Shown: one piece after another, positions 6,396 through 26,801 of the stretch | Position numbering within the stretch: position 1 is the first letter of the stretch | How the letters are laid out: each line of letters opens with the position of its first letter | Origin: Candidatus Obscuribacterales bacterium | GTDB lineage: Bacteria; Cyanobacteriota; Vampirovibrionia; Obscuribacterales; Obscuribacteraceae | Assembly: GCA_019746975.1 (NCBI GenBank) | Contig: JAIERK010000086.1 | Coordinates: 1-64,000 of the forward strand | Reading direction: 5' to 3' | Length of the DNA stretch: 64,000 nucleotides | Position numbers and translations under genes: made by a program | The notes under the pieces: generated by a model | What the model was told of the DNA's origin: nothing | Seen by the model: only the letters and a program-made list of their open reading frames with translations | Database searches by the model: none

Positions 6396-6990
6396 TTCTG
6401 AACTTCCCTGAGAAATGCGTTTAAGTCCTGTGAGGACGAAATAGGGGGAGGAGCGTGACCAAAGCGCTTGAATCGGATAAGGCAATCGATTTGCAATATC
6501 TCAAATTTCGCGGTTACTAGTCGGTGTTCTTGCTCTGGCGATAACGGAGAAGATGCATTGGTGCTGCATACCGATGCATTGACAAAACAATTGCAAGACG
6601 CTTCGTCATAATAAAGTTTCAAGTGTGGCTAATTCGTACCCAGCGTGGGGATACTACGTATGAAGGCGGGCACTTTTTTATCTTTGTTGTAGTCAAGTGT
6701 TGGCGCTTTTCGTGCCTTTTTCGCTGAAGAATGTTGGCTCGACAATGCTTCCGGGTGAGACATTGAGTTCTCGCTCTTTCCGATGTGTGACTGAAGCCTG
6801 TTTCATTTCGCCACTCGAAGACGTTCAGACTCGATTGATGGAGAACTGTTCTGCAGTTCGGCATGATGAAGAACTGTTGGGCAAGATGTTTCCGCGAACC
6901 ATCTTTGCAAATTGCTTTAGCAGCCGGCTACCAACCGACTACCACCGCTCGCCGATTTCAACTGATACGCATATGATATGTGGTTGCGCT
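6396..6990. other. Intergenic stretch with no supported gene
   Basis: Several short open frames cross this stretch on both strands. None has a convincing ribosome site or a recognisable protein. It should contain the promoter of the proline-rich gene (minus strand), but I cannot place a clear -35/-10 pair. Confidence 0.5.
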
Positions 6991-10990: not shown

Positions 10991-11018
10991 GCAGCTAGCT
11001 CATACTTGAGTTAGCTGC
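10991..11018 (+). terminator. Hairpin between convergent gene ends
   Basis: GCAGCTAGCTCA (10991-11002) pairs with TGAGTTAGCTGC (11007-11018) over 12 bp with one G-T wobble and a TACT loop, followed by TTCGATTTT. It overlaps the desaturase stop codon and lies 21 bp after the plus-strand gene, so it could serve both strands. Confidence 0.65.
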
Positions 11019-11914: not shown

Positions 11915-12002
11915 TGTCTACGGAGGCGTGCACTTCTGTAGAGAAGGAATCACACTTGATCATGATCGTTTGTAAGTATCTTCGAACATCGTGAAAACTG
12001 GG

Positions 12003-12692: not shown

Positions 12693-13270
12693 ATTCTAAC
12701 CTGTTAGTAGTTCGGCTCAGCGAACATGGATGGCTACGATTGGATCGTGCGATTTGGTGATTCGCGGACTGTAAAATCTCACGGGCTATTACCTACTATC
12801 TACATTGTAGTACTTAATCGTGCAACCGATACAGATCTTCGCACGAATTGAGTGAGCTTAGTTCCCCTACATCACGGACTAGCCAGCTCCTCGGGACATA
12901 ATTAACTCTTGACTCTCTGAATCCTTCACTTACCGAGCGGTAAGCATCTAGGAGACCTGTAAGTTGGTATCACTTGCAGTGCGTGTTCGCTCGTTCGCCA
13001 CTCTTTGTTGAAGGTCGTCCTCTCCAACTTTGACTGTGCCTTTGAAGCGCTAACATAGCAGGCGAATCACCGAACCGGAGATTTTAACCCGACCTTCACC
13101 TGACCATAGTACAAATAAAATGTGTCAACGATAGACTGACATCCCGAAAACATATTTGTTGGTTTGGTTGGTTTGGAACGGTATTAAAAGTGGTGCTCAA
13201 GTGTCGTGGTGAGAGATTGGTGCAACGAGGTTACTGCGCAGGACTCGCGATTGCCGTTGGATCCAGTCAT
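12693..13270. other. Intergenic stretch with an 11-bp direct repeat
   Basis: No gene is supported here. The stretch contains a TTTTAAC...CCTTCAC direct repeat (13082-13099) facing the plus strand, although no convincing plus-strand protein follows. A 40-odd codon plus-strand frame around 13190-13335 exists but has no support. A small RNA is possible. Confidence 0.45.
13082..13099 (+). promoter_or_regulatory. Pho-box-like direct repeat, 11-bp period
   Basis: TTTTAAC (13082-13088) and CCTTCAC (13093-13099) are spaced by one 11-bp period, matching the pattern seen upstream of four other genes in this region. No plus-strand gene is evident downstream, so the target is unclear. Confidence 0.4.
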
Positions 13271-13528
13271 TTAACAAATAGAGCCTACTGTCGTCGACGC
13301 AGTAAAGCATGGCATTACGGTCAATCCTTTGAATAACGATGCAATCCGATCGGATTCACGACGCACAAAATCCACCGGATCTCTGATGACTCCAGCAACT
13401 GCCTGTTCGTTAAAAAACACACGCGCATTGCCGTTGCTCCAGCCATAGGAGGAAAGCGACTTGAGAACTGCCTGTTCGCTTGCGTACGGATCTGACATGA
13501 GGCATTTGTTGTGGGCGATCAACGCCAT
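13271..13528 (-). CDS. Small hypothetical protein (doubtful)
   Basis: An 85-aa frame with reasonable composition: an N-terminal helix-like MSDPYASEQAVLKSLSSYG and a strand-like ARVFFNEQAVAGVIRDPVDF. There are two in-frame ATGs (13528, 13498), neither with a good ribosome site. I recognise no domain. It may be a real small gene or a remnant. Confidence 0.35.
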   Translation of the reverse strand: MALIAHNKCLMSDPYASEQAVLKSLSSYGWSNGNARVFFNEQAVAGVIRDPVDFVRRESDRIASLFKGLTVMPCFTASTTVGSIC

Positions 13529-13660
13529 GTAGCGAATGCCGGACGATAGTGTCTTGGATTTTTGTTCTCAACTCCGACAATGTAGTAGTCCGTCCGGAAA
13601 ACGCCTGTCTCGGGCGCGCACCAGCAGTCCACAGTTCTTAGGTGACGTAGTATTTGATTC

Positions 13661-14134
13661 CTATTGGCCTTTATCAGATAAAAGCGTTTCCTCTGCCCTT
13701 AAAAGAGCCTGAGTTCGCATTGCTCTATTTTGGACAAATGGATTCTCATCTGCAGCTAGTTGTTGGAGTAGCGCAGGGTTAGTCCAGGGGTTTTCGGCCA
13801 TGGCAAACCGAACATCGTCGCTGGCATCGCCAGCTAAGGCTTCGACAGTGGAACGAAGGCTATTGTCGTTTTGTGCGACTGCTGCCCTTATATCGCTCGA
13901 CTCATGTTGTGACAGAAAATCCAGTGTATCAGAATTCGTTGTCCTATTTTCCGCGACGCGTTGTTGCACCGATTTATTCAAACTTCGTGCTAATCGATCT
14001 AATACACCTGCCTTGTTATTCAGGCCTGATGCCAAACGATTCTTCGCAGCGGTGAACATGTTCCACCGTGGGTAAATCCGACTCTGGTCAATTCTAAGTT
14101 TTGTTGAAAACTGCTCTGGTGTCATGATGTTCAT
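13661..14134 (-). CDS. LRV/HEAT-like repeat protein
   Basis: This 157-aa soluble protein has two to three helical repeats of the form VAxNxxTxxxxLxxLxxDxxxDVRxAVAxN, for example SSDIRAAVAQNDNS and SDDVRFAMAENPWTNPALLQQLAADENPFVQ. The pattern matches leucine-rich-repeat-variant/HEAT-like families that form curved protein-binding surfaces. A paralogue with the same closing segment (ADENP, then a run of Ala/Arg) is encoded at 26802-27455. ATG 14134 follows AGGATTT. The binding partner is unknown. Confidence 0.8.
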   Translation of the reverse strand: MNIMTPEQFSTKLRIDQSRIYPRWNMFTAAKNRLASGLNNKAGVLDRLARSLNKSVQQRVAENRTTNSDTLDFLSQHESSDIRAAVAQNDNSLRSTVEALAGDASDDVRFAMAENPWTNPALLQQLAADENPFVQNRAMRTQALLRAEETLLSDKGQ

Positions 14135-14415
14135 AAATCCTATTGTGTCTGACTAGGATTTGTAGCTTGCCCAGTTTTGATGGAGCGTCCGTTCGGAGAA
14201 ATCCAGTAAATGCCGAATACACTATCATTATCACACATTATCAACATTTATGCTGATTAGTGGTGCCATCGTAGATGATGGCATAAACTATCTGGGTGAT
14301 CATCAATGAAATCGCCTCCAGAAGCAATTTGACAAGCAAGAATCACTTTATCGGGGCGCCGTTCACTTATGATGTCACGTCGACGCGGGGTCGCTGAAAC
14401 AATAGGCGGACCAAG

Positions 14416-14640
14416 CTAGGAATCTCGCATCTTTTGTTGCTTTCGCGTGCGCCTTAGTAATTGTTCGATGCCCTTCAACGCCGCCTGGCTGGTCAGAAGT
14501 TCGTGACCATTGTTATGTGTATCGAAGATCTGCTGTGCCTCATCGATCTGCGCGATCAGCTTGAGCCTTATAGTCTCAAGATCTTCTAGATTCGGAGCTT
14601 TATCTGGTTCCATCTTGGAACATCCATTCAAAAGTCGCAC
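14416..14640 (-). CDS. Small helical hypothetical protein
   Basis: A frame of up to 74 aa. The more likely start is ATG 14613 (MEPDKAPNLEDLE), giving 65 aa. The product is highly charged and predicted helical (LETIRLKLIAQIDEAQQIF, then LLTSQAALKGIEQLLRRTRKQQ), so it could form a two-helix bundle or coiled coil. No family is recognised. Confidence 0.5.
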   Translation of the reverse strand: MRLLNGCSKMEPDKAPNLEDLETIRLKLIAQIDEAQQIFDTHNNGHELLTSQAALKGIEQLLRRTRKQQKMRDS

Positions 14641-14825
14641 TGTATACTGATCTTACCTCTAGACGGAGAACTCCGCTAGTCCCGTTGTGCCGCGGGCCCT
14701 CAACTTCTGTAGCTATAGCATGTCTCGTTTCCGCTGATGCTACGCGATCTTAGGCAGCGACTTGCTTTCGGCGAACTTCCGAGCTTGTTGTTGCCTCGAT
14801 GCTTTGCCATCACAGTCAGTGAACA

Positions 14826-15269
14826 TCAGTGACTATCAGTCTCGAATTGATCCGCATAATAAGTGCCAACCTTCTCTGCCGGGAGCAACCATTCTATTTC
14901 TTGACGAAAAACATTGGCATCAAAGTGCTCCATAGTTAAATACCGGACCGCACCCAGTGCACGTGCTGCGGTCCGTACTCCGTCGGCTAGATACTTACCT
15001 ATCTCTGGTGGCTCGGCGCTGAAGCAGACAAACGGAACGGAACGCAAGTAAGGATCGCCTTTCGTCCAACGCAGAAAGTCAAATACGCTACCACCATTTT
15101 GCAGGTGCACATCTGAGATGATAAGGTCGATGTCCGAGCATTTGAGAACCTCCATGGACTTGTGAAAAGTGTCTGCTTGGATCACGCAGTGTCCGAACTT
15201 CTCCAAGCAATCGGAGATCAGCTTCATTTGCTCTTTGTGTTCCATGGTCACTAAAATTTGCGCTTTCAC
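14826..15269 (-). CDS. Stand-alone receiver-domain protein A
   Basis: Receiver domain of about 147 aa with the phospho-acceptor Asp in DLIISDVHLQNGG, reached from GTG 15269, which follows AGGTGG (an earlier GTG at 15278 is also possible). The C-terminal switch region reads AVRYLTMEHFD, so the usual Lys-Pro is missing. The acidic pair is reduced to TMEHKEQ. There is no output domain, so it may act as a phosphate sink or by protein contact. It is a tandem paralogue of the next gene upstream; both share NGGxVFDFLRW, KYLADGVRT and AR(A/V)LGA. Confidence 0.88.
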   Translation of the reverse strand: MKAQILVTMEHKEQMKLISDCLEKFGHCVIQADTFHKSMEVLKCSDIDLIISDVHLQNGGSVFDFLRWTKGDPYLRSVPFVCFSAEPPEIGKYLADGVRTAARALGAVRYLTMEHFDANVFRQEIEWLLPAEKVGTYYADQFETDSH

Positions 15270-15294
15270 GTTATCCACCTAACTTCTTTGGCTG

Positions 15295-15732
15295 TCAATC
15301 TGTGTTTTCATATATATCTCTCTCAGCATCTTGTCTCTCTTTGGGCAATAAGTTTTCGATATGTTTGCTGAAGACTTCGCCATCGAAGCTGTCCATCTCT
15401 ATATACTTCGCGGCGCCCAATACGCGCGCTGAAGTGCGGACACCGTCGGCCAAATATTTTGCGATTGGCGAAGGCTGGAAGCTAAACAAAACGAAGGGAA
15501 TGGCTACGGGCAACTTAGAGCGATTCACCCATCGCAAGAAGTCGAAAACATTGCCACCATTGTCCAGATGAACGTCTGAGATAATCAGATCAATGTCTCT
15601 GAGTTTTAGTATGGCTTTTGCCTCAACGAAGCTATCGACCACAAATACCTGATAGCCACCCTGTTCCAAACAGTTTTTTACTTGGGTGGAGTTAGCGTGT
15701 TCTTCGAGCAGCGCGAGAATTGTAGTGGCCAT
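15295..15732 (-). CDS. Stand-alone receiver-domain protein B
   Basis: A 145-aa paralogue of the downstream receiver protein, 25 bp away and surely in the same operon. The phospho-acceptor is Asp53 (IDLIISDVHLDNGG), and the switch region AAKYIEMDSFD again lacks the Lys-Pro pair. The start ATG 15732 follows AAGGTG. Both proteins insert Asn-Gly-Gly after the Asp strand and keep an unusual FSxxPxxIxKYLADGVRT segment, which suggests a distinct subfamily that arose by tandem duplication. Confidence 0.9.
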   Translation of the reverse strand: MATTILALLEEHANSTQVKNCLEQGGYQVFVVDSFVEAKAILKLRDIDLIISDVHLDNGGNVFDFLRWVNRSKLPVAIPFVLFSFQPSPIAKYLADGVRTSARVLGAAKYIEMDSFDGEVFSKHIENLLPKERQDAERDIYENTD

Positions 15733-16258
15733 TTTTTCACCTTCACCGTCTATGCGGTGACCAGATCAGGTGAGAAATAATGTCCGCTTTCAGCGGCCTA
15801 TTAATATTCTGTTTGCAGCTGACTTTAAAACTTGCCTATCTCAATCTATCATGGCAGGTCATTGTGAAAAGTAAACAAACGATTTCAAACGCTAGTAGTT
15901 GGATTGGCGTCTGTTAACGATCTCGGGATTAATAAAGATTTGTGTCCCACTTGGTCTTAGTGATTCGCTTGATTCTCGTGAATTCGTCAGCACTTGAAGT
16001 GAAGGTTGAAGCAGTGTTGTCAGTCCATGGTGTGACACTAATGACGGTATCTCACCAATCACGGTATCACAAATTCATGTATTCTCGAAGTTGTTGGGTT
16101 GATGTAGGAGCCGCTTACTACATCATTGAGAAGTGCTACGTACAAAGTATGAATCAAGTGTTCTGCCAGGAATCTTCGAATTCGCGTTAGTCGCACCGAA
16201 GCATAAAGTGTAACTAAGCCAAAGTTCAAGACTCGCTCCGTCATGTTCAAGTCCACGA

Positions 16259-16290
16259 AGAAGGTAGAAAGTTTTGACTTTCTACCTTCT
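16259..16290. terminator. Perfect orphan hairpin, terminator-like
   Basis: AGAAGGTAGAAAGT (16259-16272) pairs with ACTTTCTACCTTCT (16277-16290) around a TTTG loop, a 14-bp perfect stem. A modest T-rich stretch (CGTTTATAT) follows on the plus strand. No annotated gene ends nearby on either strand. Confidence 0.5.
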
Positions 16291-16351
16291 CGTTTATATC
16301 TGGAAAATTTTGGTTGCGGTGAGCTACCGCTGGAGTCTGCTCTTTTACTGG

Positions 16352-16369
16352 TTTTTACCCAATTTTGAC
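16352..16369 (+). promoter_or_regulatory. Pho-box-like direct repeat upstream of the zinc-ribbon gene
   Basis: TTTTTAC (16352-16358) and TTTTGAC (16363-16369) repeat with an 11-bp period. Nine bases later comes AATAGATG, a weak -10 candidate. The site lies about 80 bp before the 16450 start. Confidence 0.5.
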
Positions 16370-16449
16370 GATTTTGAATAGATGATGAAGGTATGAACCG
16401 CGCTCCAATAGCGGATCTGAGGGCACGAACCAAAACAGGGAGAAAGATA

Positions 16450-16653
16450 ATGAATCGAACGATGGTTGGGAAGTCGGCAACGTGTGGTGGATACTACTGC
16501 ACGCGATGCTGTAATACTTTTGAGTTTACGACAGGACCATTGAGGTGTCCTGAATGCTTCAACAGAATACGCGACAACCTGGTGCTTATCGATGTTCGGG
16601 AAGTGCCGGAGGAAGTCATGATGCATACACCAGTAGATTTTCAAGGCGGGTAG
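16450..16653 (+). CDS. Small zinc-ribbon protein
   Basis: A 67-aa protein starting at ATG 16450 after a clear GGGAGAAAGATA ribosome site. It carries YYCTRCCNTFEF and LRCPECFNRIRD, two CxxC knuckles that would bind one zinc ion in a rubredoxin-like ribbon, then an acidic tail. The function is unknown; such ribbons often mediate protein or nucleic-acid contacts. It has its own upstream repeat-type promoter region and a downstream hairpin, so it is probably a single-gene unit. Confidence 0.75.
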   Translation: MNRTMVGKSATCGGYYCTRCCNTFEFTTGPLRCPECFNRIRDNLVLIDVREVPEEVMMHTPVDFQGG

Positions 16654-16689
16654 ATTTGAAGAGCTTATTCAATCCGTATTTGTTAGAAC

Positions 16690-16713
16690 GTGTGCGTCAA
16701 ACAAGGCGCACAC
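16690..16713 (+). terminator. Terminator of the small zinc-ribbon gene
   Basis: GTGTGCG (16690-16696) pairs with CGCACAC (16707-16713), followed by the T-rich ATTGTTCTTTAATT. It lies about 37 bp after the stop codon. Confidence 0.7.
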
Positions 16714-17107
16714 ATTGTTCTTTAATTGCTCATTAGCCTTGTTCTCCGGAGATGCATCGACGGAAAGTATCCTCATAGCGGCGGTCGTTGTTATCGCACA
16801 TCTCTGATTGCAGCGAGCGCCTTGCGAGCTGCAATAAATTTGGTCGATTCCTGGAAAAACAATTGCCTGAAGGAGTTGAAAATGTAAAAGATACTGAGAT
16901 TAAAGTCTCGTGAACATCGTTGACTAGGTAGCCAATGCTCAGATGTCCTACTTGGTTAGGCACCATGCCTGTATCACATTTTACTGTCAAAAGTAAACAA
17001 TAACTAATGCCTGCAGTTACCTGTGCGCGTTCAATTCACGCAGTTTTAACTGATTTCGACCGATACTGAACCAGAAGCCGACTTCGGCGCGACGAATTTC
17101 CACAAGG
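16714..17107. other. Intergenic stretch with no supported gene
   Basis: A minus-strand frame at 16733-16990 lacks a ribosome site and protein-like composition. I see no repeat or RNA gene. Confidence 0.45.
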
Positions 17108-17356
17108 ATGATAGTAATGAGAATGCGCGGATTCAGTAGCAATTTACCGGTATGGGCAGTTCCAATCGATGAACTTTCGAAGGATTTGAGGCGCATGCTG
17201 AATGTTCAATGGCGAGAATTTATCCATGAACTTGACCTCGTGCCAATAGCGGAGTCGAAAAATCTAAACACCAAGACAAGTGTGGCACCTGCTGTGGCAC
17301 TGTTAGAGCGCTTATTTTCTTGTCCCGATGCCACCATTCGAAACAAGATTTGGTGA
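17108..17356 (+). CDS. Small hypothetical protein
   Basis: An 82-aa frame. ATG 17108 and ATG 17117 are both possible; AAGG directly before 17108 is better placed for 17117. The product is partly helical (IDELSKDLRRMLNVQWREFI) with a hydrophobic centre (VAPAVALLERLFS). No domain is recognised. It stands alone between the zinc-ribbon and GlsB-like genes. Confidence 0.45.
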   Translation: MIVMRMRGFSSNLPVWAVPIDELSKDLRRMLNVQWREFIHELDLVPIAESKNLNTKTSVAPAVALLERLFSCPDATIRNKIW

Positions 17357-17557
17357 TCAATATGCAAGCACGAACCTAACATGCCGCTGCGCGATGAAAA
17401 AACTCCCAGATCGAGTATCCAACATGATTGCTACGAAAGCGAGGTTGGCCACAGTTAACCAGAACACGTTATTGCGCCGTTCATGACGATTGATACTCTG
17501 TTGGCTAAAAACTTGTCATCTAGCAAGCCTGAGAGTCGATGTCTGAGGATCGATTTA

Positions 17558-17809
17558 CTAACGTCCTTTGAATCTGCGGCGACATAAAGAGAGCGCGAGT
17601 AAAAGAAGAGCGCTCCCGAGTGCACAAGGAAGCAATGCGACCCCAGCTAGAGATGGACCAAATTTCGCAAAAATACTGCTTCCAATCCAGGCGCCGATCA
17701 TGCCCACGATTGTAGACATGAAGAAGCCGCCTCGTCCGCCGGGCACTATTCGTTCTGCTATGAATGCGCACATAGACGCGACACACAAATAAAACAAGAA
17801 ACCTGACAT
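17558..17809 (-). CDS. GlsB/YeaQ/YmgE-family (transglycosylase-associated) membrane protein
   Basis: From ATG 17809, preceded by AAGGAGATTTCT, this is an 83-aa protein with three transmembrane helices. They are FLFYLCVASMCAFIAERIV; then the family loop GGRGGFFMSTIVGMIGAWIG; then VALLPCALGSALLLLALSL, with an Arg/Lys-rich tail. The Gly-rich loop and size match the YeaQ/YmgE/GlsB family, small inner-membrane proteins linked to general stress in other bacteria. It is divergent from the histidine-kinase-like gene and shares its promoter region. Confidence 0.85.
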   Translation of the reverse strand: MSGFLFYLCVASMCAFIAERIVPGGRGGFFMSTIVGMIGAWIGSSIFAKFGPSLAGVALLPCALGSALLLLALSLCRRRFKGR

Positions 17810-17893
17810 AGAAATCTCCTTAGGGTTGTAACCGAATGAATCGAAGCAGGTAGCTTCAGCCAATGAGTGAGGTGTCGATTGAGTTGTTTCCAG

Positions 17894-17912
17894 TTTTTAC
17901 GCAACTTTTAAC
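17894..17912 (+). promoter_or_regulatory. Pho-box-like direct repeat upstream of the kinase-like gene
   Basis: TTTTTAC (17894-17900) and TTTTAAC (17906-17912) repeat with a 12-bp period, one base longer than at the other sites. TAGGAT, a possible -10, follows nine bases later. The site is also about 85 bp upstream of the divergent GlsB-like gene. Confidence 0.5.
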
Positions 17913-18011
17913 CAGGTCTCGTAGGATTAAATTGAACAGAAAATTATCTGTTCGAGCAATAACTGTCGAAGATTGTGGCAGTTATCGCGTGTGTCACCTA
18001 GAGGTGGAGTC

Positions 18012-18734
18012 ATGAACAAATCGATGCTGAGCAAGTTGTCTGGACTATATAGAGAAATTGGTGGGAGCCACAAAGTAGATTCGATCGACACTTTGGTCGC
18101 ATTTGTCAGAGACAACGATCACGAAGTGCTGTCTGTCGTCACAGCGCTACAGGCTCATCTTGATCTGCTCCATGATGAGCTGTTGCTGAAAAATTGGCCG
18201 GTCGATCGATTCGTAGTGCTTAATCGAGCAGTCGATAGGCTGATAGCAGACACGGTCAAACTGAGCTCCGTATCGCAATTGACACAGGCACCTCGAGTGG
18301 AACAGAAACGAACACTGGGGAGCCTGGTAGAAGAGATTGCGGCTGAGACACAACCGGATTTTAGCAAGAGCAATGTCTCGCTCAACTGCAACATATCGCA
18401 GGGTACGACTTTAGTCCAGAATGCTCGTGCCGTCAAACTCATGATCAAAGAATTGATCCTGGCCGTGCTGCACAACTGCAAGCAATTGGAGACTGTGACT
18501 CTTTCAGGTTCGTCTCACAAGAAGCTTGTGTCAATGGCATGTGATACAGGATCAGAATCAAACGAAGGAAAGTTCAAGCGCTGGCAACTTGGAAAGTTAG
18601 ATCAGATTCCGACCAATGGCGACGGCATCATGCTTTCTACTGTCGATGCCATAGCACGTCTGAATCACGGACATTTAAGTGTGCGACCATCGTCGGATCA
18701 TCGAAGTGAATTCAGATTGAGCTTTCAGATTTGA
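18012..18734 (+). CDS. Degenerate cytosolic histidine-kinase-like protein
   Basis: A 240-aa protein from ATG 18012, with GGTGGAG just upstream. It lacks any sensor domain or membrane helix. An HisKA-like helix carries the candidate phospho-His in DNDHEVLSVVTALQAHLDLL. The ATPase half shows worn N, G1 and G2 boxes: LILAVLHNC, CDTGSESNEG and NGDGIMLSTVDAIARLNHGH. ATP binding is doubtful because the G1 and F regions are short and poorly kept. It may be a weak kinase, a phosphatase or a scaffold for the surrounding receivers. A direct-repeat promoter element lies upstream. Confidence 0.75.
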   Translation: MNKSMLSKLSGLYREIGGSHKVDSIDTLVAFVRDNDHEVLSVVTALQAHLDLLHDELLLKNWPVDRFVVLNRAVDRLIADTVKLSSVSQLTQAPRVEQKRTLGSLVEEIAAETQPDFSKSNVSLNCNISQGTTLVQNARAVKLMIKELILAVLHNCKQLETVTLSGSSHKKLVSMACDTGSESNEGKFKRWQLGKLDQIPTNGDGIMLSTVDAIARLNHGHLSVRPSSDHRSEFRLSFQI

Positions 18735-19330
18735 GTTGATATTCACTCAGTTTTGACAATTGTCTTTGCATACTGAAAGGTAAGAGTGGTTGTGAAACTG
18801 CCGAGTAGCGGCACTGTCAATTGTCATGAGCCGCACGACGTAAGTAAATCGGAGGATGCAACTATGGTCTTTAAACATACACCTGAAGCGACGATGGCGC
18901 CGATCTGACAGTAATACTCAGGCGCGACCGGGCACTGCCAGGAGTATTAGATTGACTGTGAGCACCGTCCGGTCACTAAAATTGCTGATGAGCCTGGCAC
19001 TCTAACTATTCTGACCCAGGTTTTGTCGACTATCTCAATCAGAGACGACCGAACATACTCACGACAATTGGCTTCTGAATCCAATTCAGTAATCCGAACT
19101 GCACTATCTGCGCATTGCAATCCGAGCAGGTGGTGCAGTTTAGTCATGGAAGCTCTAAAACCTGTATCCCCATGGCGCATGACGTCAACACTCTAAGGTT
19201 GTGAGGAGACTCTACGCAAATGTCCTGGAATAGGTCTTTTCACCCCACTTTCACGCGCGCGGGTGTCTAATTTAAATGATCCCGTCTGTTTTGGCAAGCT
19301 GGCTGAGCAGGCATCTCACTAGGTAATACT
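18735..19330. other. Intergenic stretch with a 14-codon frame and hairpins
   Basis: The stretch contains the palindrome GACAATTGTC near 18753 and the related GTCAATTGTC near 18819. ATG 18864 with GGAGG eight bases upstream opens a 14-codon frame (MVFKHTPEATMAPI). It is followed by a hairpin whose outer arms are TAATACTC and GAGTATTA. A minus-strand 77-codon frame (18947-19180) has no support. The TTTTCAC/CTTTCAC repeat (19237-19254) precedes the hemerythrin-like gene. Confidence 0.45.
19237..19254 (+). promoter_or_regulatory. Pho-box-like direct repeat upstream of the hemerythrin-like gene
   Basis: TTTTCAC (19237-19243) and CTTTCAC (19248-19254) repeat with an 11-bp period. TCTAAT follows 11 bases later as a possible -10, and the start codon is about 75 bp downstream. 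Confidence 0.5.
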
Positions 19331-19861
19331 ATGAATACGTCAACAAAAAATCTGCCGGCGCTGAAGCCTCTCGCTCGAGACCACGGCATTGTGCTTGTCT
19401 GTGCACAACATGGACGCAAGGCTGTCCGAGCGTCGAAAGATGACAGACTAAGACTGGCGGTGCAGATGCGTACTATCTGCCACGAACAAATCTATCCAAA
19501 TCTGGAGGACGAGCAATGGATTTTGTCGCCCTTCATTGGAGACGCTCAACTTCGCGAAGAATTTCACCAAAGACACAGAACTATTCGATCGCTAACGAAG
19601 GAGTTGTTCAAGGTGGATTTATACTCTGATCCGGGTTTGGGACTGGTGGCAAGAGTCGCTAATGTATTGGACGACTACGTACGCTGGGAGGAGAATACAC
19701 TTTTTCCTCGCATCGGGGAAGGTATCGAGAATGACGGCGTGGAGCATTTAGGAAAATTGACGTCTGCGCTCGAAAAAAATCGACGTCGACCCACGCAACA
19801 ACTTCATACGTCTGTGACATTGGAGCAACCGTCAGGTCTGCGCCGTTCGAGTGCTAACTGA
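19331..19861 (+). CDS. Hemerythrin-like (HHE) domain protein
   Basis: A 176-aa helical protein. Residues 10-130 show the four-helix hemerythrin pattern: ARDHGIVL (His18), AQHGRK, EDEQWILSP, EEFHQRHRTIRSL and YVRWEENTLFPRI. The His and Glu residues would bind a di-iron centre that senses or carries oxygen or NO, the usual role of bacterial HHE proteins. The last 40 residues are basic and probably disordered. It could feed an oxygen or redox signal to the regulators around it. The next gene starts 30 bp downstream. Confidence 0.8.
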   Translation: MNTSTKNLPALKPLARDHGIVLVCAQHGRKAVRASKDDRLRLAVQMRTICHEQIYPNLEDEQWILSPFIGDAQLREEFHQRHRTIRSLTKELFKVDLYSDPGLGLVARVANVLDDYVRWEENTLFPRIGEGIENDGVEHLGKLTSALEKNRRRPTQQLHTSVTLEQPSGLRRSSAN

Positions 19862-19891
19862 TCAGGATACGAATTTTGGGAGACATACAAA

Positions 19892-20170
19892 TTGAGTCTC
19901 ATACTTATAGCCGACACACCTCAGCCGAGACGCATCTCTTCCCTCCAACGCATCCTGTACGGACACGATTTGGTGACCGCCGATTTTCAGCGGGCAGTAG
20001 TCGAATCTTCTCGGCTCCTGAGCGACAGGGTCTCGGATAGTGTGATAATTAGCGAAAACGAGATGACCGAGTTGGAAGATGTGCAGCTCAAAAGAGAGAC
20101 GTCTCAGACGACCGCGGAAGCTGACATCTCTGACGCCGAGTCGCACAAACATTGCATCGGTCAAAACTAA
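19892..20170 (+). CDS. Short receiver-like remnant
   Basis: A 92-aa frame starting with TTG 19892 after GGGAG. The first 40 residues (SLILIADTPQPRRISSLQRI) look like the first strand and helix of a receiver domain, with the acidic pair reduced to one Asp. The strand that should hold the phospho-Asp reads DSVIISENEM (Glu instead of Asp). The protein then ends in polar sequence, so the second half of the fold is missing. It may be a decaying gene or a short interaction module co-transcribed with the hemerythrin-like gene. Confidence 0.5.
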   Translation: MSLILIADTPQPRRISSLQRILYGHDLVTADFQRAVVESSRLLSDRVSDSVIISENEMTELEDVQLKRETSQTTAEADISDAESHKHCIGQN

Positions 20171-20250
20171 ATCCGACGCGCCACAACACTAACACTGTTC
20201 CAGGATAATACGATAGGACTTCAGCGCTCAAGAAAGAGATGCTACTCGGA

Positions 20251-21939
20251 TCAAGAAGGCTTACCCCAGAACCAACCTTGACCGAAGTCGATTCCGAGAT
20301 GTCGGATTACATTCAGGTCTTCCTTGGTTTCGATCCCTTTGGCTACTGTCTTTATCCCGATGGATTTCGCTACTCTTGCTAGCTTGCTAAGAGAGCGGCG
20401 CTGTTCGATATCGTCGGCTACGCCACTGATGCACTTCCCGTCAATTTTAATGGTCTCTGGTTCCAAAATGAATAATGATTCTAAGATACTGCCACCATAG
20501 CCGATATCATCCAACGAAATGGAGATGCCATTCGCTCGCAATTCTTGCACTTGTTTTTTTAGATGGGTAGGGTCTGTCACCATCCTGCGTTCGCTGATCT
20601 CAAGGCTAATCTGCCCACCGGAGCGGTTACGTTGAATCAGATCGATTAGCCTGTAAGTCGGTACATCCGCCAGTGTAGACGGAAAGATATTGATACTCGT
20701 GAGCAGATCGGTATGCAAGAATCTGCCTTGCTTGAGGCAGAGCTCCAGGCATCTAAGGTCAATGGCGGTGAGAATGTTGTTGTCCAGGGAAAGTCGAAAC
20801 AACTGTTCAGGCATCTCAAGCGGTCCTACCGGCCCTCGGAACAGGAACTCATATCCTATTGTCACGTCATCGTCGAGCCGGACTATAGGCTGCCCGATCA
20901 CGCGGCATGTGTTATTGCCATTAAGCAATGCAATAAGACTGCAAGCGTCCGGAGACAGGAACTTCGTGCTTCCATCACCGAAGCTCACCCTGTTCTTTCC
21001 TCTGCTCTTACTCTCTTTGAGAGCCGCTGTAGCAAGCTCCAGAACCTCCTCGATGGAGGTAGTATGCATGGGTAGAGAGACAAGTCCCAGGCTCGCGGTG
21101 ACACGGTGCTCATCCGGAAGTCCGGAGTCCGGGGTCTCGCTGAGCGACTGTCGAACTCGTTCTGCGACTTGCACGCCGATAGGCAATGCCGTGCACGGTA
21201 ACAGAATGAGGAACTCGTCTCCACCTACTCTGCCAATCCAGTCGACGCCACGTAGCCCGTCCTTGAGTGATTGTGCGACCCTTCTCAAGACACGGTCTCC
21301 TGCCGCATGTCCACTAGCGTCGTTGACGGCCTTGAAATCATCGAGATCAACAAGTACCGCTAAGAGCTCGGTTTTGTTCCTTCCTGCGTAGCTGACTTCT
21401 CTTTGTAAAACATTCTCCAGTCCGCGCCTATTAAGCAATTCGGTCAGTGGATCTGTTTTGCTCAGGCTGACCAATTGCGCATTTGTTTCTTCTAGTTCTC
21501 TATTAATAGTTTCCAGGGCACGTCTAGCCAAAAGATTAGGAGTCATCTCCCTGATGCTAGCCACCACGAATCGATGGCTACCGATCACGAGCGCGCTTAT
21601 AGAGACTTCAGCAGAGAACTCAATTCCATCTTTCGTCATCGCCTGCATATTCGTCACGTTACAGAAAACAGTCATTGAATCAGCCTTACTACCGATGGAG
21701 ATCGCTGCGAGGCTCTCAAACCATCCCGGTAGGAGCTTTCGTGGATTCTGACCTGCCAATTGCAATGAGCGATACCCGAACAGTTGCTCCGCTCTGGCGT
21801 TGATCAGGATTATCTTGTCTTGATCGTCCGCGACCAGAAGCGCATCGGGGGCCTGTTTGAACAGCTGCCTCAATAAGCGCATAGGAGTAGTCTCCGTGCT
21901 CACATTATCGACGATTGAGTTCTCAGTACGACTTAACAT
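20251..21939 (-). CDS. PAS-GGDEF-EAL cyclic-di-GMP enzyme
   Basis: A 562-aa cytosolic protein: PAS domain (about 20-130), coiled linker, GGDEF domain (about 160-320) and EAL domain (about 345-562). The diguanylate cyclase site is intact (GGDEF 239-243), with an inhibitory RxxD I-site at 230-233. In the EAL domain the signature reads EFL (364-366), but the other metal and catalytic residues look present: Asn417, Glu447, Asp477/478, Lys498, Glu537 and Gln554. It could therefore both make and break cyclic di-GMP, with the PAS domain as sensor. It is transcribed alone on the minus strand among the small regulators. Confidence 0.95.
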   Translation of the reverse strand: MLSRTENSIVDNVSTETTPMRLLRQLFKQAPDALLVADDQDKIILINARAEQLFGYRSLQLAGQNPRKLLPGWFESLAAISIGSKADSMTVFCNVTNMQAMTKDGIEFSAEVSISALVIGSHRFVVASIREMTPNLLARRALETINRELEETNAQLVSLSKTDPLTELLNRRGLENVLQREVSYAGRNKTELLAVLVDLDDFKAVNDASGHAAGDRVLRRVAQSLKDGLRGVDWIGRVGGDEFLILLPCTALPIGVQVAERVRQSLSETPDSGLPDEHRVTASLGLVSLPMHTTSIEEVLELATAALKESKSRGKNRVSFGDGSTKFLSPDACSLIALLNGNNTCRVIGQPIVRLDDDVTIGYEFLFRGPVGPLEMPEQLFRLSLDNNILTAIDLRCLELCLKQGRFLHTDLLTSINIFPSTLADVPTYRLIDLIQRNRSGGQISLEISERRMVTDPTHLKKQVQELRANGISISLDDIGYGGSILESLFILEPETIKIDGKCISGVADDIEQRRSLSKLARVAKSIGIKTVAKGIETKEDLNVIRHLGIDFGQGWFWGKPS

Positions 21940-22644
21940 AACCTACCTCATTTACTTTGACAAACGATCTTCGATATCTTCAAATCTTCTTGTCACTATA
22001 TTTGGTGTCAAAGCCGAATAGCTCGAACATTCATTGAACGTGAATTGATTAATGCCTTCAAATGCATGTCCGTTTGGGTGCCGTCAATTCCATTCTCTAC
22101 GGCTCTCCAAATAGTCCATTCTAGTTATATAGCCTATGAGATCGAAACGAATGGCATAAATACTGGTGTTATACAAAAATCTGTGACGCTATTAAGAATC
22201 ATATCTACTTTAGTTGAATATCTGTGTACTATGCGTGAATGCTCCCAAGCTTTGTGTCTGAAGTGGGCTGTAGAGGACCACTTATATGAGCACCAGGAGT
22301 CTTGCGCAGCAGGTAGAGATGACACGACACTGGTGCGCTGCGTCTAGAATATCACCAGCGATGGTGTCAATCGTTGCTCCTGGTTTTTCTTTCACGAGGT
22401 TTTATAGACTTGGTCAAACGCCCTGTCCGTAATGGTGTGATCTGTCGTGATCCGCGCGATTTGCTGATATTGGTGACTAATGGTCGATTCTTGCCACACA
22501 CTCGCTGTTTTCACCCCGTTTTAACAAGTCTCAGTAAATAATCTAAATGTGAACTGTGGCAACTACAGCAACGTTCAAATGGCCTCCCAACCGAGAATGG
22601 CCTTTTGTACTGAGCACGTCTGATCTCGCGGACAGAGGACATCT
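21940..22644. other. 705-bp gap with a direct repeat before the HTH gene
   Basis: A plus-strand 100-codon frame (22045-22347) lacks protein-like composition and a ribosome site. The stretch carries the TTTTCAC/TTTTAAC direct repeat (22508-22525). No other gene is seen. Confidence 0.5.
22508..22525 (+). promoter_or_regulatory. Pho-box-like direct repeat upstream of the HTH gene
   Basis: TTTTCAC (22508-22514) and TTTTAAC (22519-22525) repeat with an exact 11-bp period. AT-rich TAAATAATCTAAAT follows nine bases later, where a -10 would be expected. The HTH gene starts 120 bp downstream. Confidence 0.55.
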
Positions 22645-22902
22645 ATGCGCAAGGTTCGACAACGAAGAGGAGAGCCGTTTTTAAAGCATCTGGGAGAGGC
22701 AGTTCGCAACCAGCGCATAGAATTGTTACTCTCTCAAGCGCAGCTGGGAGAAAGGTGCAATTTGCATCGAACGTATATTACCGACATTGAAGGCGGTCTC
22801 AGAAACACCTCCATTTTGACTCTTCAGCGCGTGGCAGCGGCGCTTACAATCCGCCTGTCTGCACTGATCGATGCAGCCGAGAAACTGATGAATGCAAATT
22901 GA
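22645..22902 (+). CDS. Xre/Cro-type helix-turn-helix regulator
   Basis: An 85-aa protein that is almost only an HTH_3 domain: LGEAVRNQRIELLLSQAQLG, then CNLHRTYITDIEGGLRNTSI as the recognition region, then LTLQRVAAALTIRLSALI. It matches the family that includes phage repressors and restriction-modification controllers. ATG 22645 follows AGAGGACATCT. No partner gene is adjacent, so it is probably a stand-alone transcription factor. The promoter region has the shared direct repeat. Confidence 0.9.
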   Translation: MRKVRQRRGEPFLKHLGEAVRNQRIELLLSQAQLGERCNLHRTYITDIEGGLRNTSILTLQRVAAALTIRLSALIDAAEKLMNAN

Positions 22903-23260
22903 ACAGCGGTTATCGGGTGTGGCTTTATTGACACGGAACATAGCGCGCAGACAGACTCTGCTGAGAATTACAATTCGTTGCTGGATGCTTGGCATGGCGA
23001 GGGACCGTTTGAATTGTATTTCTCGTGTATCCCACGGCAGAGGGTAGCATTGGCAAATTGATTCGCTAATTACTGTCTTTAGAAGCCAGAGCACAGATTT
23101 TAACTTTTCGGAAACCATTGGCCAGTCAAGTTACGCACCTTTGCTTCCTTACCTGCCTCAGAGTCCGATGAGTTTTCTCTATTGATCATCTGTAGGATCA
23201 AAGTAGACGAACCGGGGGCCCAGGGGAAACAGTGGTTGAGTTCTAGAGGCGTGAAGCAAA
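22903..23260. other. Intergenic stretch with no supported gene
   Basis: It contains TTTTAAC followed by TTTTCGG near 23098, but at a 7-bp spacing that does not match the other repeats. No gene is seen. Confidence 0.45.
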
Positions 23261-23995
23261 GTGTCAAGTATTCTAGTTGTGTGTCATGCCACTCTTCCAG
23301 GTCCAATCCGGCGAGCTCTAACAGACGATGGCCACATATTGCAGGTGCTCTCGCGTGATGTGAGTGGGTCATACTTGTCTAGCGTTCCTCCAGCGGATCT
23401 AATCATTTTTATTGCCACGGAAAGCCATGATTGGGTGCTGGGATTAATTGCGGACTTTCGTCATGCAGGTGGACAGACTCCTTTGCTGGTAGTGTGTCAT
23501 GCAAATTCCCGGCTGACCGCTTCAACCGTTCGAGCTGCGGGTGGCGATGCTCTCCTTTACAACCCATATGCTTCAGCCGAGCTACTCATTAGAGTGCATT
23601 CGCTAGCTGAGCGCAGTTACGGGATCGTGGACAGTGTCTACATCGTGGGTGCTTATCTAATTGATCCGGTCACTAATCAGATCTGGTGCCATAGAAAAGC
23701 GGTGACCATTGGTCCTGCCGAATCGCGCTTGCTAATGTTCTTGATCAGTCATGCGGGAAAGTATTTTACTTGCGAGCAGTTGGTAGGGCGGCTCGGTCTG
23801 TCAGAAAGTGGCTCGGATTACTCCGTGCGCACACTGATTATGAAGCTGCGCAGAAAGATGAGGCAAGTCGGGTCTGATGCAATTATCAAAGGCAGATATG
23901 GTCTGGGATACTGCGTAGAACACGTGACATCGGAACGACGCGCCGATATGCTCGAACAGATGTCGCTACTCGTTGACAATAGTCTTTCCGATTGA
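23261..23995 (+). CDS. OmpR-family regulator with a dead receiver
   Basis: This 244-aa protein has a receiver-like domain (1-115) and a winged-helix DNA-binding domain (about 130-225; SRLLMFLISHAGKYFTCEQL, YSVRTLIMKLRRKMR, GRYGLGYCVE). The acidic pair is VVCHAT. The phospho-Asp strand is DLIIFIATES with no Asp at the expected site (Ile51/Ala52), and the Lys-Pro is Asn-Pro (LLYNPY). All the chemistry of phosphotransfer is gone, so it should act independently of a kinase. The start is GTG 23261 after a weak GAGG. The same fold is repeated by the next gene. Confidence 0.88.
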   Translation: MSSILVVCHATLPGPIRRALTDDGHILQVLSRDVSGSYLSSVPPADLIIFIATESHDWVLGLIADFRHAGGQTPLLVVCHANSRLTASTVRAAGGDALLYNPYASAELLIRVHSLAERSYGIVDSVYIVGAYLIDPVTNQIWCHRKAVTIGPAESRLLMFLISHAGKYFTCEQLVGRLGLSESGSDYSVRTLIMKLRRKMRQVGSDAIIKGRYGLGYCVEHVTSERRADMLEQMSLLVDNSLSD

Positions 23996-24210
23996 AGCAT
24001 TTTGGTACCATAAATAGTGTCAGAGATGAATCGCATCGGTTCTGCGATAAAGCGCGTCATGCGGTCCTTTGGACTTCCTTAGCCGTTTGCGATGGCACAT
24101 GACTCAATTGTTTACTTGCTTCATCTCCGCGATGCAATTACAATTGCCAGAGACGGAAACTCAACCCGACTAGGTTGCGATACGATGGACAGTTACCTCA
24201 AGGAAAGTGC

Positions 24211-24918
24211 TTGTCGATTGCACGCTCACTGCAGGTAAAATACGCTGTGTTCGAAGTAAACATTGTTGACAGCGGAAATGAGCATGATTCGCGTCTCCTA
24301 AAACTGCTCCATGCTGCCAGTTATCCTGTGCGCCTGCTTGATGATTGGCCCGATCCTGCCCAACTTGAAAAAAATGGAGGAGTGATTCTTGCCTGGCACG
24401 ACGTCGGTGACGCTATTGATTCTCTTATCAGGTATCGAATGCAGGGCGGTATCATTCCTGTCATTTTGATTTCAGCAAAGCAGTTGACCACCGTTGGCAG
24501 GATTCGAATGTACTCTGCCGGTGCCGACGAATGTATTACATCCGTGTGGGAAAAAAATGAGCTTGTTGCAATCTTAGAGTCATTCGCTCGAAGACCTTTT
24601 ATTCGAAGGGGAAATACAATACTTCTGGGTGGTCTTACTATCAATCTGGTCGATCAGGTAGTCGAAACGAATGATGATACCATCCACTTGACCAGCGCAG
24701 AGTTTCGCATTTTGGAGTTTCTCGCGCTACATCCACGATGCGCGTTCAGCGCCAGCGCCTTACTGGAGCGATTGTGGTCCCGACCGGAGGCGGTATTCGA
24801 AGATACTGTTCGGAGCCACATCAAAAATATTAGACGCAAGGTCGACAGTCCGGGTAGCCAGTCGGTTATTCGAACCATAGCAGGCCGCGGATACATGATT
24901 GAAAATAGCTGCCCATAG
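24211..24918 (+). CDS. OmpR-family regulator with a dead receiver
   Basis: I prefer TTG 24211, which follows AAGGAAAGTGC; the frame extends to TTG 24175. The product is about 235 aa. The receiver-like half keeps the fold (VNIVDSG, IIPVILISA, SAGADECITS), but the phospho-Asp strand reads GVILAWHDVG, with Trp at the site, and the Lys is lost (TSVWEK). The C-terminal winged helix is intact and close to that of the 12.0-kb regulator: EFRILEFLALHP, EDTVRSHIKNIRRKVDSPGSQS and GRGYMIEN. It is therefore a paralogue of that gene with an even more altered receiver. Confidence 0.87.
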   Translation: MSIARSLQVKYAVFEVNIVDSGNEHDSRLLKLLHAASYPVRLLDDWPDPAQLEKNGGVILAWHDVGDAIDSLIRYRMQGGIIPVILISAKQLTTVGRIRMYSAGADECITSVWEKNELVAILESFARRPFIRRGNTILLGGLTINLVDQVVETNDDTIHLTSAEFRILEFLALHPRCAFSASALLERLWSRPEAVFEDTVRSHIKNIRRKVDSPGSQSVIRTIAGRGYMIENSCP

Positions 24919-25021
24919 CCCCAGCGTCGATCTTCGGAGATTCTTGTGAGTGTCTTACAAATCATATGCCTATAGCCGATTCAGTATACGCGGAGCTGTA
25001 GTCGTATCTCTTCTCCGTACT

Positions 25022-26461
25022 TCAGCGATTCTCCCCGACTGCGCAACCGTTTGGTAGTCCCGACTTTAGCATGTACCGAATCTTGCTCCCGAGCATTCGA
25101 AAATTGAGAGGAATCTTGATCAATTCCGAAATTCCAGACTTCTTGATTCCTACCGGATTGAGGTCTCGCTCGTTTTTATATATGGCGCCAATCGGCAGGG
25201 ACCGCCCAAGCGCTTTTCTGAGATCAGAGCATAACTCTGGAATGGTTTCGGATAAAGCCGAGTCAATGTCGATTAACACCAGATCAACTCGCTGGCAGTA
25301 ACACCTGACGAGCGCGTCTGCACAATGGTCAAATCGAAATATGTCCGTTATGTTAGCTGAGCTGAGCAATTGACTTGCGATATCAAAGTTAGAATTGTCG
25401 CTTACCAGTACCACTCGAGGAAGAAATTGGAATTCTGCGCAGCGCTCTTTGGGTGACAATACAGCTGTATTGACCAGCGACTTACCTCTATCAAACAGAT
25501 TTGTCAATTGCTCCCAGAAAAGCTCTCTCTTTTCACCAGATTTTAACGAAAATCTGGTATCCGAACAATTTTTGATTCGTTGTGTAATGTCACCGATGAG
25601 CGTGTATCCAAGCAGATATGCTGTGTCGATCAGGCGGTCGATTAGATTGTTCAGTCTATCGCGGCACTCATGATCATATTCCTTCGACTCTTCGATGATC
25701 CGTCCCAGTTCCGCCCAGTATTTGAAAAGCAAGAACGAATAACACTCCTGGTCGTTGCCGATGGCGGTAAACTCTTCCGTTCTGCGCTCTAATGCCTCAA
25801 TATGTCGGCGCAGTTGGTGCGATTGCAAGTTGTTTGATGCACGAGCTTTTGGCTGTTCAATCGGGTAAATCTCAGCAGTGCGTTCCCCAGTCGTCATGCA
25901 GTCGGCGATTACTATTTCGGAGTCCGTGGTCTCTACTCCGCTCGTCAAAGTCAAATTAGTATTGTTGATATCGTTGAAGTCGGTCTCTTGTGGAGCGCTG
26001 GGGCGGATGCGCTCAGACGATTTGCGCCAGCTACGACGCGCAGCGCCAGCCTGCCGATTATGATCGGTAGATGCAAGCCAATTCGACTGTGCCAAAGAAG
26101 GAGCAAGAATCGAATTCACCTGTTGTAATAGACTGTTCTCCTTCATCGGTTTTTCAGCGAACGCATTAATCCCAAGTAAGTTACGCAAACAGCTAAAAGT
26201 ATTAGCTCCCAGAGAGCTGGAGAACACTATTACCGGAACGCGATTTTTTGATTCTCTTATAGACTTAAGCCAAGCCATGCTCCCGTTAGATTCCTTGTAG
26301 TCCAATATGATCAGTGCTATGTGTGCACCAAATACAGTAGCAGCCTCGGGTACGCTGCGTGCCTCGACAATATTGCCAAAGCCGATCGAAATTAGCATTT
26401 GGCTTAGCCGTTGTCGAAAATGAAAGTCGGAATCTACTATTAGGATTGGATGTGAGTTCAA
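25022..26461 (-). CDS. Receiver / HPt-like / receiver hybrid protein
   Basis: A 479-aa soluble protein starting with TTG 26461 behind GGGGGATAAGC. The N-terminal receiver looks active: acidic pair in LIVDSD, Asp54 in LIILDYKES, Ser in FSSS and Lys104-Pro. A disordered linker follows (about 125-225). A helical part (about 230-320) resembles an HPt module but has no His at the phospho site (LIDTAYLLGYTLIGD). The C-terminal domain is a second receiver-like fold (VVLVSDNSN, DLVLIDIDSA, LIKIPL) with a shortened acidic patch. It may integrate signals from the local receivers. It is alone on the minus strand. Confidence 0.82.
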   Translation of the reverse strand: MNSHPILIVDSDFHFRQRLSQMLISIGFGNIVEARSVPEAATVFGAHIALIILDYKESNGSMAWLKSIRESKNRVPVIVFSSSLGANTFSCLRNLLGINAFAEKPMKENSLLQQVNSILAPSLAQSNWLASTDHNRQAGAARRSWRKSSERIRPSAPQETDFNDINNTNLTLTSGVETTDSEIVIADCMTTGERTAEIYPIEQPKARASNNLQSHQLRRHIEALERRTEEFTAIGNDQECYSFLLFKYWAELGRIIEESKEYDHECRDRLNNLIDRLIDTAYLLGYTLIGDITQRIKNCSDTRFSLKSGEKRELFWEQLTNLFDRGKSLVNTAVLSPKERCAEFQFLPRVVLVSDNSNFDIASQLLSSANITDIFRFDHCADALVRCYCQRVDLVLIDIDSALSETIPELCSDLRKALGRSLPIGAIYKNERDLNPVGIKKSGISELIKIPLNFRMLGSKIRYMLKSGLPNGCAVGENR

Positions 26462-26801
26462 AGCTTATCCCCCATATAGACTATGAGTTTCGAGTCGATT
26501 GCCTTTGTTTTGAAGGGCATCAGACAATTTCTATGCTGTTATGCATGTCCGAATTTTGCATTAAGCACTGTGTGCTCCGTGTGAAGCAATCTGTCCGAGG
26601 TTTTGCAACCGAGTAGTTCGGATTTGTCAGAAGGCGACGATAGAGACCGCGCACCACGAACGGTGCCGTAGCGCGAACTTATATTGAAATCTTTGGATAT
26701 TCACACCGAGTACATGGTCTTTAACTATTATTGAACTATCACGCATTTAAGTTTCGGTATCTTGGGGCCGACAACGTAGGCCGTCATCGAGGTTATTAAA
26801 C
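26462..26801. other. Divergent intergenic region between the hybrid receiver and LRV-like genes
   Basis: CTTTAAC (26719-26725) and ATTGAAC (26730-26736) form a weaker version of the 11-bp repeat, about 65 bp before the plus-strand start. No gene is seen. Confidence 0.4.

What the first reader, a model, noticed from the sequence alone, without database searches (positions are those of the whole stretch)
13082..26736. Shared TTTTnAC direct repeats with an 11-12 bp period upstream of signalling genes
Pairs of TTTTnAC-like heptamers occur at 13082, 16352, 17894, 19237, 22508 and, weakly, 26719, five of the six with an exact 11-bp period (12 bp at 17894). They sit 65-120 bp before the zinc-ribbon, kinase-like, hemerythrin-like, HTH and LRV-like genes, with AT-rich -10 candidates often 9-11 bp downstream and no -35. 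OmpR/PhoB-family proteins bind 11-bp direct repeats, and cyanobacterial Pho boxes look alike. This suggests one regulator controlling the whole region.
Basis: partly seen in the sequence, partly recalled or inferred. Interest (0 to 1): 0.8.

Follow-up and report, generated by a model that had tools for sequence, protein, structure and literature searches.

The report
Island stress-type regulon with own regulator
A 21-kb block of genes in an uncultured non-photosynthetic cyanobacterial relative carries a regulator and a set of promoters built on a matching 11-bp repeat; the two turn up together in related genomes, so the repeats are very probably the regulator's on-switches for envelope and stress genes.

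Summary
The repeats are real promoter elements. The window is Candidatus Obscuribacter (Obscuribacteraceae). In its 7.5-Mb genome, 5 of 6 sites with at most one mismatch to TTTTnACCCnnTTTTnAC lie in this window. Relatives show a class I promoter, TnTTCACCCAGTTTTnAC-N10/11-(G)ATACT, and a class II promoter, TTCACCkGAsTTTnAC followed by TTGCTCRTGGTCAAAT. Matrices trained only on relatives recover 22508 and 16352 (class I) and 19237 and 13082 (class II) as top window hits. 26719 is not supported; 17894 is a degenerate kinase-gene site.

The likely regulator is window 12003-12692(-), an OmpR/PhoB-family protein with a degenerate receiver (acceptor Asp is Glu52). Its orthologues occur in 12 of 50 family genomes. 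The exact class I promoter occurs 23 times, only in 10 of those 12. The pattern holds within genera (p=0.0006).

Other targets include sigma factors, a phospholipase, RlpA-like, SPFH, holin-like and transglycosylase-associated proteins, suggesting an envelope/general stress regulon. A sensorless degenerate histidine kinase (18012-18734) occurs only with the regulator. The block is a ~21-kb insertion absent at that site in both congeners. DNA binding, activation and the signal are inferred.

The parts
12003..12692 (-). RR_A: OmpR/PhoB-family regulator with degenerate receiver (E8-T9 in place of the acidic pair, E52 in place of the acceptor Asp, S80 and K102 kept); proposed owner of the repeats
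   Evidence: Pfam Response_reg and Trans_reg_C; orthologues and residues; motif co-occurrence
11991..12008 (-). class I box TTTTAACCCAGTTTTCAC
11975..11980 (-). -10 GATACT, 10 bp after the box
11000..11899 (-). fatty acid desaturase behind the 12008 promoter (start GTG 11899, alternative TTG 11914)
   Evidence: PF00487; position
13082..13099 (+). class II-type box TTTTAACCCGACCTTCAC with -10 candidate TACAAA; no intact gene downstream
   Evidence: second-best class II hit of the window, 20.4; no convincing homologue downstream
16352..16369 (+). class I box TTTTTACCCAATTTTGAC
   Evidence: score 19.8
16444..16653 (+). small zinc-ribbon-like protein (CxxC pairs), no Pfam match
17033..17050 (+). 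class I box AATTCACGCAGTTTTAAC
17062..17067 (+). -10 GATACT, 11 bp after the box
17117..17356 (+). conserved small protein (xxELSxxLRxxLxxxxxEFI); homologues follow class I or class I-like sites in G054, G056 and G063
17894..17912 (+). degenerate box with 12-bp period upstream of the kinase-like gene; relatives carry boxes of varied strength at the same place
   Evidence: class I 8.0, class II 8.5 here; relatives
18012..18734 (+). kin: sensorless histidine-kinase core, H37 invariant, N-box Asn lost; found only in genomes with RR_A
18740..18757 (+). class I box TATTCACTCAGTTTTGAC, best class I hit of the window
18769..18774 (+). -10 CATACT, 11 bp after the box
19001..19069 (+). remnant of a gene whose intact homologues (family F20) also follow class I sites in G054 and G056; frame interrupted upstream
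19237..19254 (+). class II-type box TTTTCACCCCACTTTCAC with TG-TCTAAT -10
   Evidence: best class II hit of the window, 22.4; related boxes before hem in G012 and G054
19331..19861 (+). hemerythrin-like protein
   Evidence: weak PF01814 match; orthologues 54-68%
19892..20170 (+). shortened copy of a 243-263 aa receiver-like regulon protein (family F2)
22508..22525 (+). class I box TTTTCACCCCGTTTTAAC, -10 candidate AATAAT
   Evidence: score 29.0
22645..22902 (+). HTH_3 regulator behind the 22508 promoter
   Evidence: PF01381
6660..27470 (.). approximate extent of the inserted island (absent at this place in congeners G001 and G002)

Best explanation
The repeats are operators of the OmpR/PhoB-family regulator encoded at 12003-12692 (RR_A). 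A head-to-tail RR_A dimer binds the two half-sites of TnTTCACCCAGTTTTnAC (class I) or TTCACCkGAsTTTnAC (class II), 11 bp apart on one face of the DNA. The second half-site ends 10-11 bp before a sigma70-type -10, so RR_A stands in for the missing -35 and activates transcription, as PhoB does at Pho boxes. The receiver has lost its phosphoacceptor (Glu52), so RR_A probably works without phosphorylation. It may be tuned by its abundance or by direct contact with kin, a sensorless degenerate histidine kinase that occurs only alongside RR_A. The regulon is an envelope/general stress set. In this species most of it lies on a ~21-kb island that carries its own regulator. Shown here: motif, promoter geometry, intergenic placement, co-occurrence, island insertion, residue losses. 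Inferred: binding, activation, phosphorylation independence, the role of kin, the stress function.
For: Genome-wide rarity and clustering. Fixed -10 spacing in 28 of 44 sites from relatives. 96% intergenic against 77% coding. RR_A orthologues (56-68% identity) in 12 of 50 genomes with a gap down to 49%. Exact box in 19 places, 8 genomes, all RR_A+; among the 26 genomes not used to derive the motif, 3 of 4 RR_A+ and 0 of 22 RR_A- have it. Exact box plus -10: 23 hits in 10 of 12 RR_A+ genomes, 0 of 38 RR_A- (Fisher p=6e-9) and 0 reversed-pattern controls. The association holds within six genera of mixed RR_A status (p=0.0006). Class II: 14 of 16 hits in RR_A+ genomes. Distal target conserved: the C257 site and a G023 site precede homologous genes. 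Acceptor residue Glu in 12 of 14 orthologues, Ala in one, Asp in one. kin in 9 RR_A+ genomes and no other (p=9e-8). Genes behind boxes include Transgly_assoc, RlpA/DPBB, Band_7, patatin, holin-like, alpha/beta hydrolase and sigma-factor proteins; CsbD and YflT genes lie beside such sites.
Against: No binding or expression data. RR_A itself has no box, so no autoregulation is visible. Two RR_A+ genomes (G008, G013) have no exact class I promoter, and G049 has class II boxes without a detected RR_A (its assembly is 66% complete). Several targets differ between genomes. Class II has its own conserved spacer and could need another sigma factor or a second protein. One orthologue (G013) keeps an Asp at the acceptor position.
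Confidence: 0.82

Rival explanations
1. The boxes are Pho boxes of a PhoB/SphR regulator and the region is a phosphate-starvation regulon.
For: Same 11-bp period, and the same 10-bp distance to a sigma70 -10 as reported for E. coli PhoB in PMC1906773.
Against: The single PstS gene found in the genome has no box. Cyanobacterial SphR boxes are CTTAACCT with at least three copies (PMC1906773), unlike TTCACCCAGTTTTnAC. Targets are not phosphate genes. RR_A lacks the phosphoacceptor that PhoB uses.
Confidence: 0.04
2. Another regulator of the cluster, such as the HTH_3 protein at 22645, RR_B (23261), RR_C (24175) or the sigma factors, owns the motif.
For: They are encoded near the sites. Class II boxes precede ECF sigma genes in G054 and G056, and a sigma70-family gene in the own genome.
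Against: In the fetched relatives' loci no protein resembled RR_B or RR_C more than it resembled RR_A; HTH homologues were seen in only two relatives' loci, one of them without RR_A. Sigma-factor -35 elements would not be 11-bp direct repeats ending 10 bp before the -10. RR_A is the only DNA-binding protein that I found in all motif-bearing genomes.
Confidence: 0.08
3. Class I and class II are two separate regulatory systems that merely share the island, class II being read by an island-linked sigma factor or an RR_A paralogue.
For: Class II has a different centre (GGAC against CAGT) and a conserved TTGCTCRTGG stretch before its -10. G013 has class II sites and no exact class I promoter.
Against: Both share the outer half-sites, the 11-bp period, the -10 spacing and the near-restriction to RR_A genomes.
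Confidence: 0.3
4. The repeats are chance AT-rich strings picked out by eye.
For: 26719 and 25530 behave like chance matches.
Against: Matrices trained on other genomes rank the window's sites far above shuffled sequence; fixed -10 spacing; intergenic placement; phylogenetic tracking.
Confidence: 0.01

Closest known systems
HP1043/HsrA regulon of Helicobacter pylori (PMC5253667, PMC8345958)
   Same: OmpR/PhoB-family orphan regulator with degenerate, phosphorylation-independent receiver; direct repeat TTTAAG-N5-TTTAAG with 11-bp centre distance overlapping promoters; activates transcription in vitro.
   Different: HP1043 is an essential regulator in another phylum with a different half-site. 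RR_A is patchy, sits here on an island, has a co-inherited degenerate kinase, and its promoters fall in two classes.
PhoB/SphR Pho-box promoters (PMC4415409, PMC1906773)
   Same: 11-bp direct repeats; E. coli box 10 bp upstream of a sigma70 -10; head-to-tail DNA-binding domains.
   Different: Different half-site, different targets, and no working phosphoacceptor in RR_A.
ChxR of Chlamydia (PMC3960148)
   Same: OmpR/PhoB-subfamily atypical regulator that binds DNA and activates without phosphorylation.
   Different: Different lineage and targets; RR_A has a co-inherited kinase-like companion.
CpxA/HprS-type histidine kinase cores (PDB 4biw, 9epn)
   Same: kin has the DHp plus catalytic-domain layout (best TM-scores 0.6-0.65 on a low-confidence model) and weak sequence similarity (E=4e-4).
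   Different: No sensor or membrane part; the N-box Asn is missing.
General stress regulons with CsbD, YflT, Transgly_assoc and hemerythrin genes (e.g. SigB or EcfG regulons; recalled, not tested)
   Same: Overlap in the kinds of genes at these loci.
   Different: Driven here by a response-regulator-type box rather than by a stress sigma factor, although sigma genes are among the targets.

Membership tests
OmpR/PhoB-family response regulators | Receiver domain followed by a winged-helix Trans_reg_C domain | tested here: met
   PF00072 3.4e-16 and PF00486 2.4e-23; full-length match to DrrD and MtrA structures
OmpR/PhoB-family response regulators | Binds direct repeats about 11 bp apart | tested here: inconclusive
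   An 11-bp repeat tracks with the gene across genomes; binding itself not measured
Canonical phosphorylated response regulators | Acceptor Asp, acidic pair, Thr/Ser and Lys | tested here: not met
   Acceptor Glu in 12, Ala in 1, Asp in 1 of 14; acidic pair incomplete (E8-T9 here); Lys kept
Phosphorylation-independent (HP1043/ChxR-like) atypical regulators | Active without phosphorylation | not testable with these tools
   Suggested by the Glu and Ala replacements; needs acceptor-site variants in vitro
PhoB/SphR Pho regulon | Boxes upstream of pst/pho genes | tested here: not met
   PstS locus L171 best score 7.2 against 29-41 for typical class I sites
PhoB-type activated promoters (box in place of -35) | Repeat replaces the -35, about 10 bp before a sigma70 -10 | tested here: met
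   28 of 44 sites with ATA[CAT]T at offset 11 or 12; spacing rule in PMC1906773
Active histidine kinases | H-box His, N-box Asn, G-boxes | tested here: not met
   His37 and a G2-like motif kept, N-box Asn absent in all 9 kin sequences

The most novel reading that the evidence does not exclude
RR_A and kin form a two-component pair that has given up phosphotransfer: a pseudo-receiver activator held or released by a sensorless pseudo-kinase through direct contact. They run a stress regulon whose promoters, sigma factors and regulator travel between genomes as an island with its own promoter grammar.
Probability: 0.35. Interest if true: 0.78.

Novelty: new variant of a known kind. Interest (0 to 1): 0.62.

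Why it matters
A literature search for Obscuribacter turned up mainly surveys and genome papers and no regulon study in the titles listed, so this would be among the first regulons proposed for this uncultured lineage, reached from sequence alone with cross-genome tests. It offers a natural case for an open question named in a 2025 review (PMC12632262): how pseudo-receivers are switched on and off. Here one lineage shows Glu, Asp and Ala at the acceptor position in orthologues, together with a co-inherited degenerate kinase. It also gives ready-made promoters and a candidate activator for lab tests.

Tried and rejected
Pho-box reading: rejected (PstS locus without box, different half-site). 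26719 as a member: rejected (no score in either matrix). 25530: kept as probable chance (antisense within a gene, no -10). Small RNA behind 18740 or 13082: no Rfam match in 6-31 kb, no terminator found by the ad hoc scan; behind 18740 a gene remnant was found instead, behind 13082 nothing convincing. ECF sigma factor as reader of class I boxes: rejected on spacing; for class II left open. Class II hit at C238:64085: no plausible downstream gene, treated as chance. A second local cluster at C209 with weak boxes and another OmpR-type gene (L098) was seen but not resolved. AlphaFold model of kin is low confidence (pLDDT 60) and used only for the overall layout.
Full report
WHAT WAS CHECKED. All six strings are present. 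The common 18-mer TTTTnACCCnnTTTTnAC occurs in the 64-kb window 3 times exactly and twice with one mismatch, against none in simulated sequence. In the whole 7.5-Mb genome only six places have at most one mismatch, five of them in this window.

ORGANISM. Two relatives are filed as Proteobacteria and Chloroflexi and look like mislabelled MAGs.

RELATIVES REVEAL THE FULL PROMOTER. The motif search in 40 relatives showed clusters of a sharper motif in a few genomes. Forty-four sites from those loci give TnTTCACCCAGTTTTnAC, with ATA[CAT]T starting 11 bases after the box in 21 and 12 bases after it in 7. The -10 hexamer (usually xATACT) thus begins 10 or 11 bp after the box and leaves no room for an ordinary -35. 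This is the spacing reported for E. coli PhoB (PMC1906773). Of 48 strong sites 46 are intergenic although 77% of the loci is coding; the two exceptions lie within 10-20 bases of the called start and are probably start-codon miscalls.

TWO CLASSES. A second set, TTCACCkGAsTTTnAC followed by TTGCTCRTGGTCAAAT, shares the outer half-sites, the 11-bp period and the -10 distance but differs in the centre and has an extended -10.

BACK TO THE WINDOW. A class I matrix trained only on other genomes ranks 18740(+), 12008(-), 17033(+), 22508(+), 16352(+) first, with 25530 and 19237 lower; simulations give 0.3 hits at that level. A class II matrix, also trained elsewhere, ranks 19237 and 13082 first and second in the 64 kb. 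17894 scores weakly but sits where kinase-gene orthologues carry boxes of varying quality.

WHICH REGULATOR. RR_A (12003-12692, minus strand) has orthologues of 56-68% identity in 12 of 50 family genomes, then a gap to 49%. The exact class I box occurs 19 times, in 8 genomes, all RR_A+. In the 26 genomes not seen when the motif was derived, 3 of 4 RR_A+ and 0 of 22 RR_A- have it. The box plus -10 occurs 23 times in 10 RR_A+ genomes, never in the 38 others and never in reversed form (Fisher p=6e-9). Six genera contain both RR_A+ and RR_A- genomes, and the promoter follows RR_A inside them (permutation p=0.0006), so shared ancestry alone does not explain it. Class II boxes follow the same genomes, with G049 (66% complete) as the exception. 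One distal target is conserved: the only outside class I site with at most one mismatch in this genome (C257:11285) and a site in G023 precede homologous small proteins.

THE REGULATOR'S STATE. Aligned with solved regulators, RR_A has E8-T9 for the acidic pair and Glu52 for the acceptor Asp; Ser80 and Lys102 remain. Of 14 orthologues 12 have Glu, one Asp and one Ala. The receiver models confidently with residue 52 ending strand beta 3. [quoted passage not shown]

THE COMPANION. kin (18012-18734) is a 240-residue protein whose sequence and model resemble a histidine-kinase core without a sensor (model confidence low). His37 is invariant in nine relatives and the N-box Asn is absent. It occurs in nine genomes, all RR_A+. 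Three RR_A+ genomes lack it, so it cannot be strictly required.

TARGETS. In this window: desaturase (12008), small zinc ribbon (16352), a small conserved protein (17033), hemerythrin-like protein (19237), HTH regulator (22508), and a gene remnant behind 18740 whose intact homologues also have class I promoters elsewhere. On contig C126 two class II boxes precede a transglycosylase-associated protein and a sigma70-family factor. In relatives: secreted alpha/beta hydrolase (5 of 9 with strong boxes), patatin phospholipase, SPFH protein, RlpA-like and holin-like proteins, a second sigma70-family factor, an ECF sigma factor, LRV and receiver-like proteins. CsbD and YflT genes lie next to such sites. 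This mix suggests envelope or general stress; that is inference.

ISLAND. In both congeners the gene next to the carbon-starvation transporter (27479-29746) is, directly or after two genes, a homologue of window 2607-6485. In the window about 21 kb lies between them, with somewhat lower G+C (about 45-50% against 51-53%) and a leader sequence shared with G002 marking the left edge near 6.66 kb. In G001 the RR_A cluster sits on another contig.

WHAT IS SHOWN AND WHAT IS INFERRED. Shown: motif, geometry, placement, co-occurrence, residue losses, insertion. Inferred: that RR_A binds the boxes, activates, works without phosphate, interacts with kin, and that the regulon answers stress. Class II may need an additional factor.

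Noticed in passing
window about 6660-27470: About 21 kb inserted relative to congeners G001 and G002 between a conserved 1292-aa gene and the CstA-like gene; G+C somewhat lower than the flanks. No tRNA lies nearby; attachment repeats were not looked for.
   Followed up: partly
window 19892-20170: Shortened copy of a 243-263 aa receiver-like protein (LIADTPxxxxxLxxILxGHDLV) whose intact relatives have regulon promoters; suggests gene decay inside the island.
   Followed up: partly
window 13100-13260: Downstream of the good class II box at 13082 there is no intact gene and no convincing homologue among fetched loci; a promoter left without its gene or an unrecognised small gene.
   Followed up: partly
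window 14826-15732: Two tandem receiver-only proteins sharing ADGVRTxARxLGAxxYxxM; several more copies in G023 (L088).
   Followed up: no
window 23261-23995 and 24175-24918: Two further OmpR-type proteins whose receiver parts are not recognised by Pfam; no protein closer to them than to RR_A was seen in the fetched relatives' loci.
   Followed up: no
L098 (G000:C209:18000-37000): Three weaker sites of the TTTTCAyC-N4-TTTCAC kind within 10 kb, near another OmpR-family gene 38% identical to RR_A: possibly a second, related local regulon.
   Followed up: no
window 50770-50865: ARAGORN reports a selenocysteine tRNA on the minus strand.
   Followed up: no
L132 and L137: MAGs filed as Proteobacteria (Centralia_MAG_505) and Chloroflexi (Bin_14_1_1) carry the Obscuribacteraceae regulator and are probably mislabelled.
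   Followed up: no
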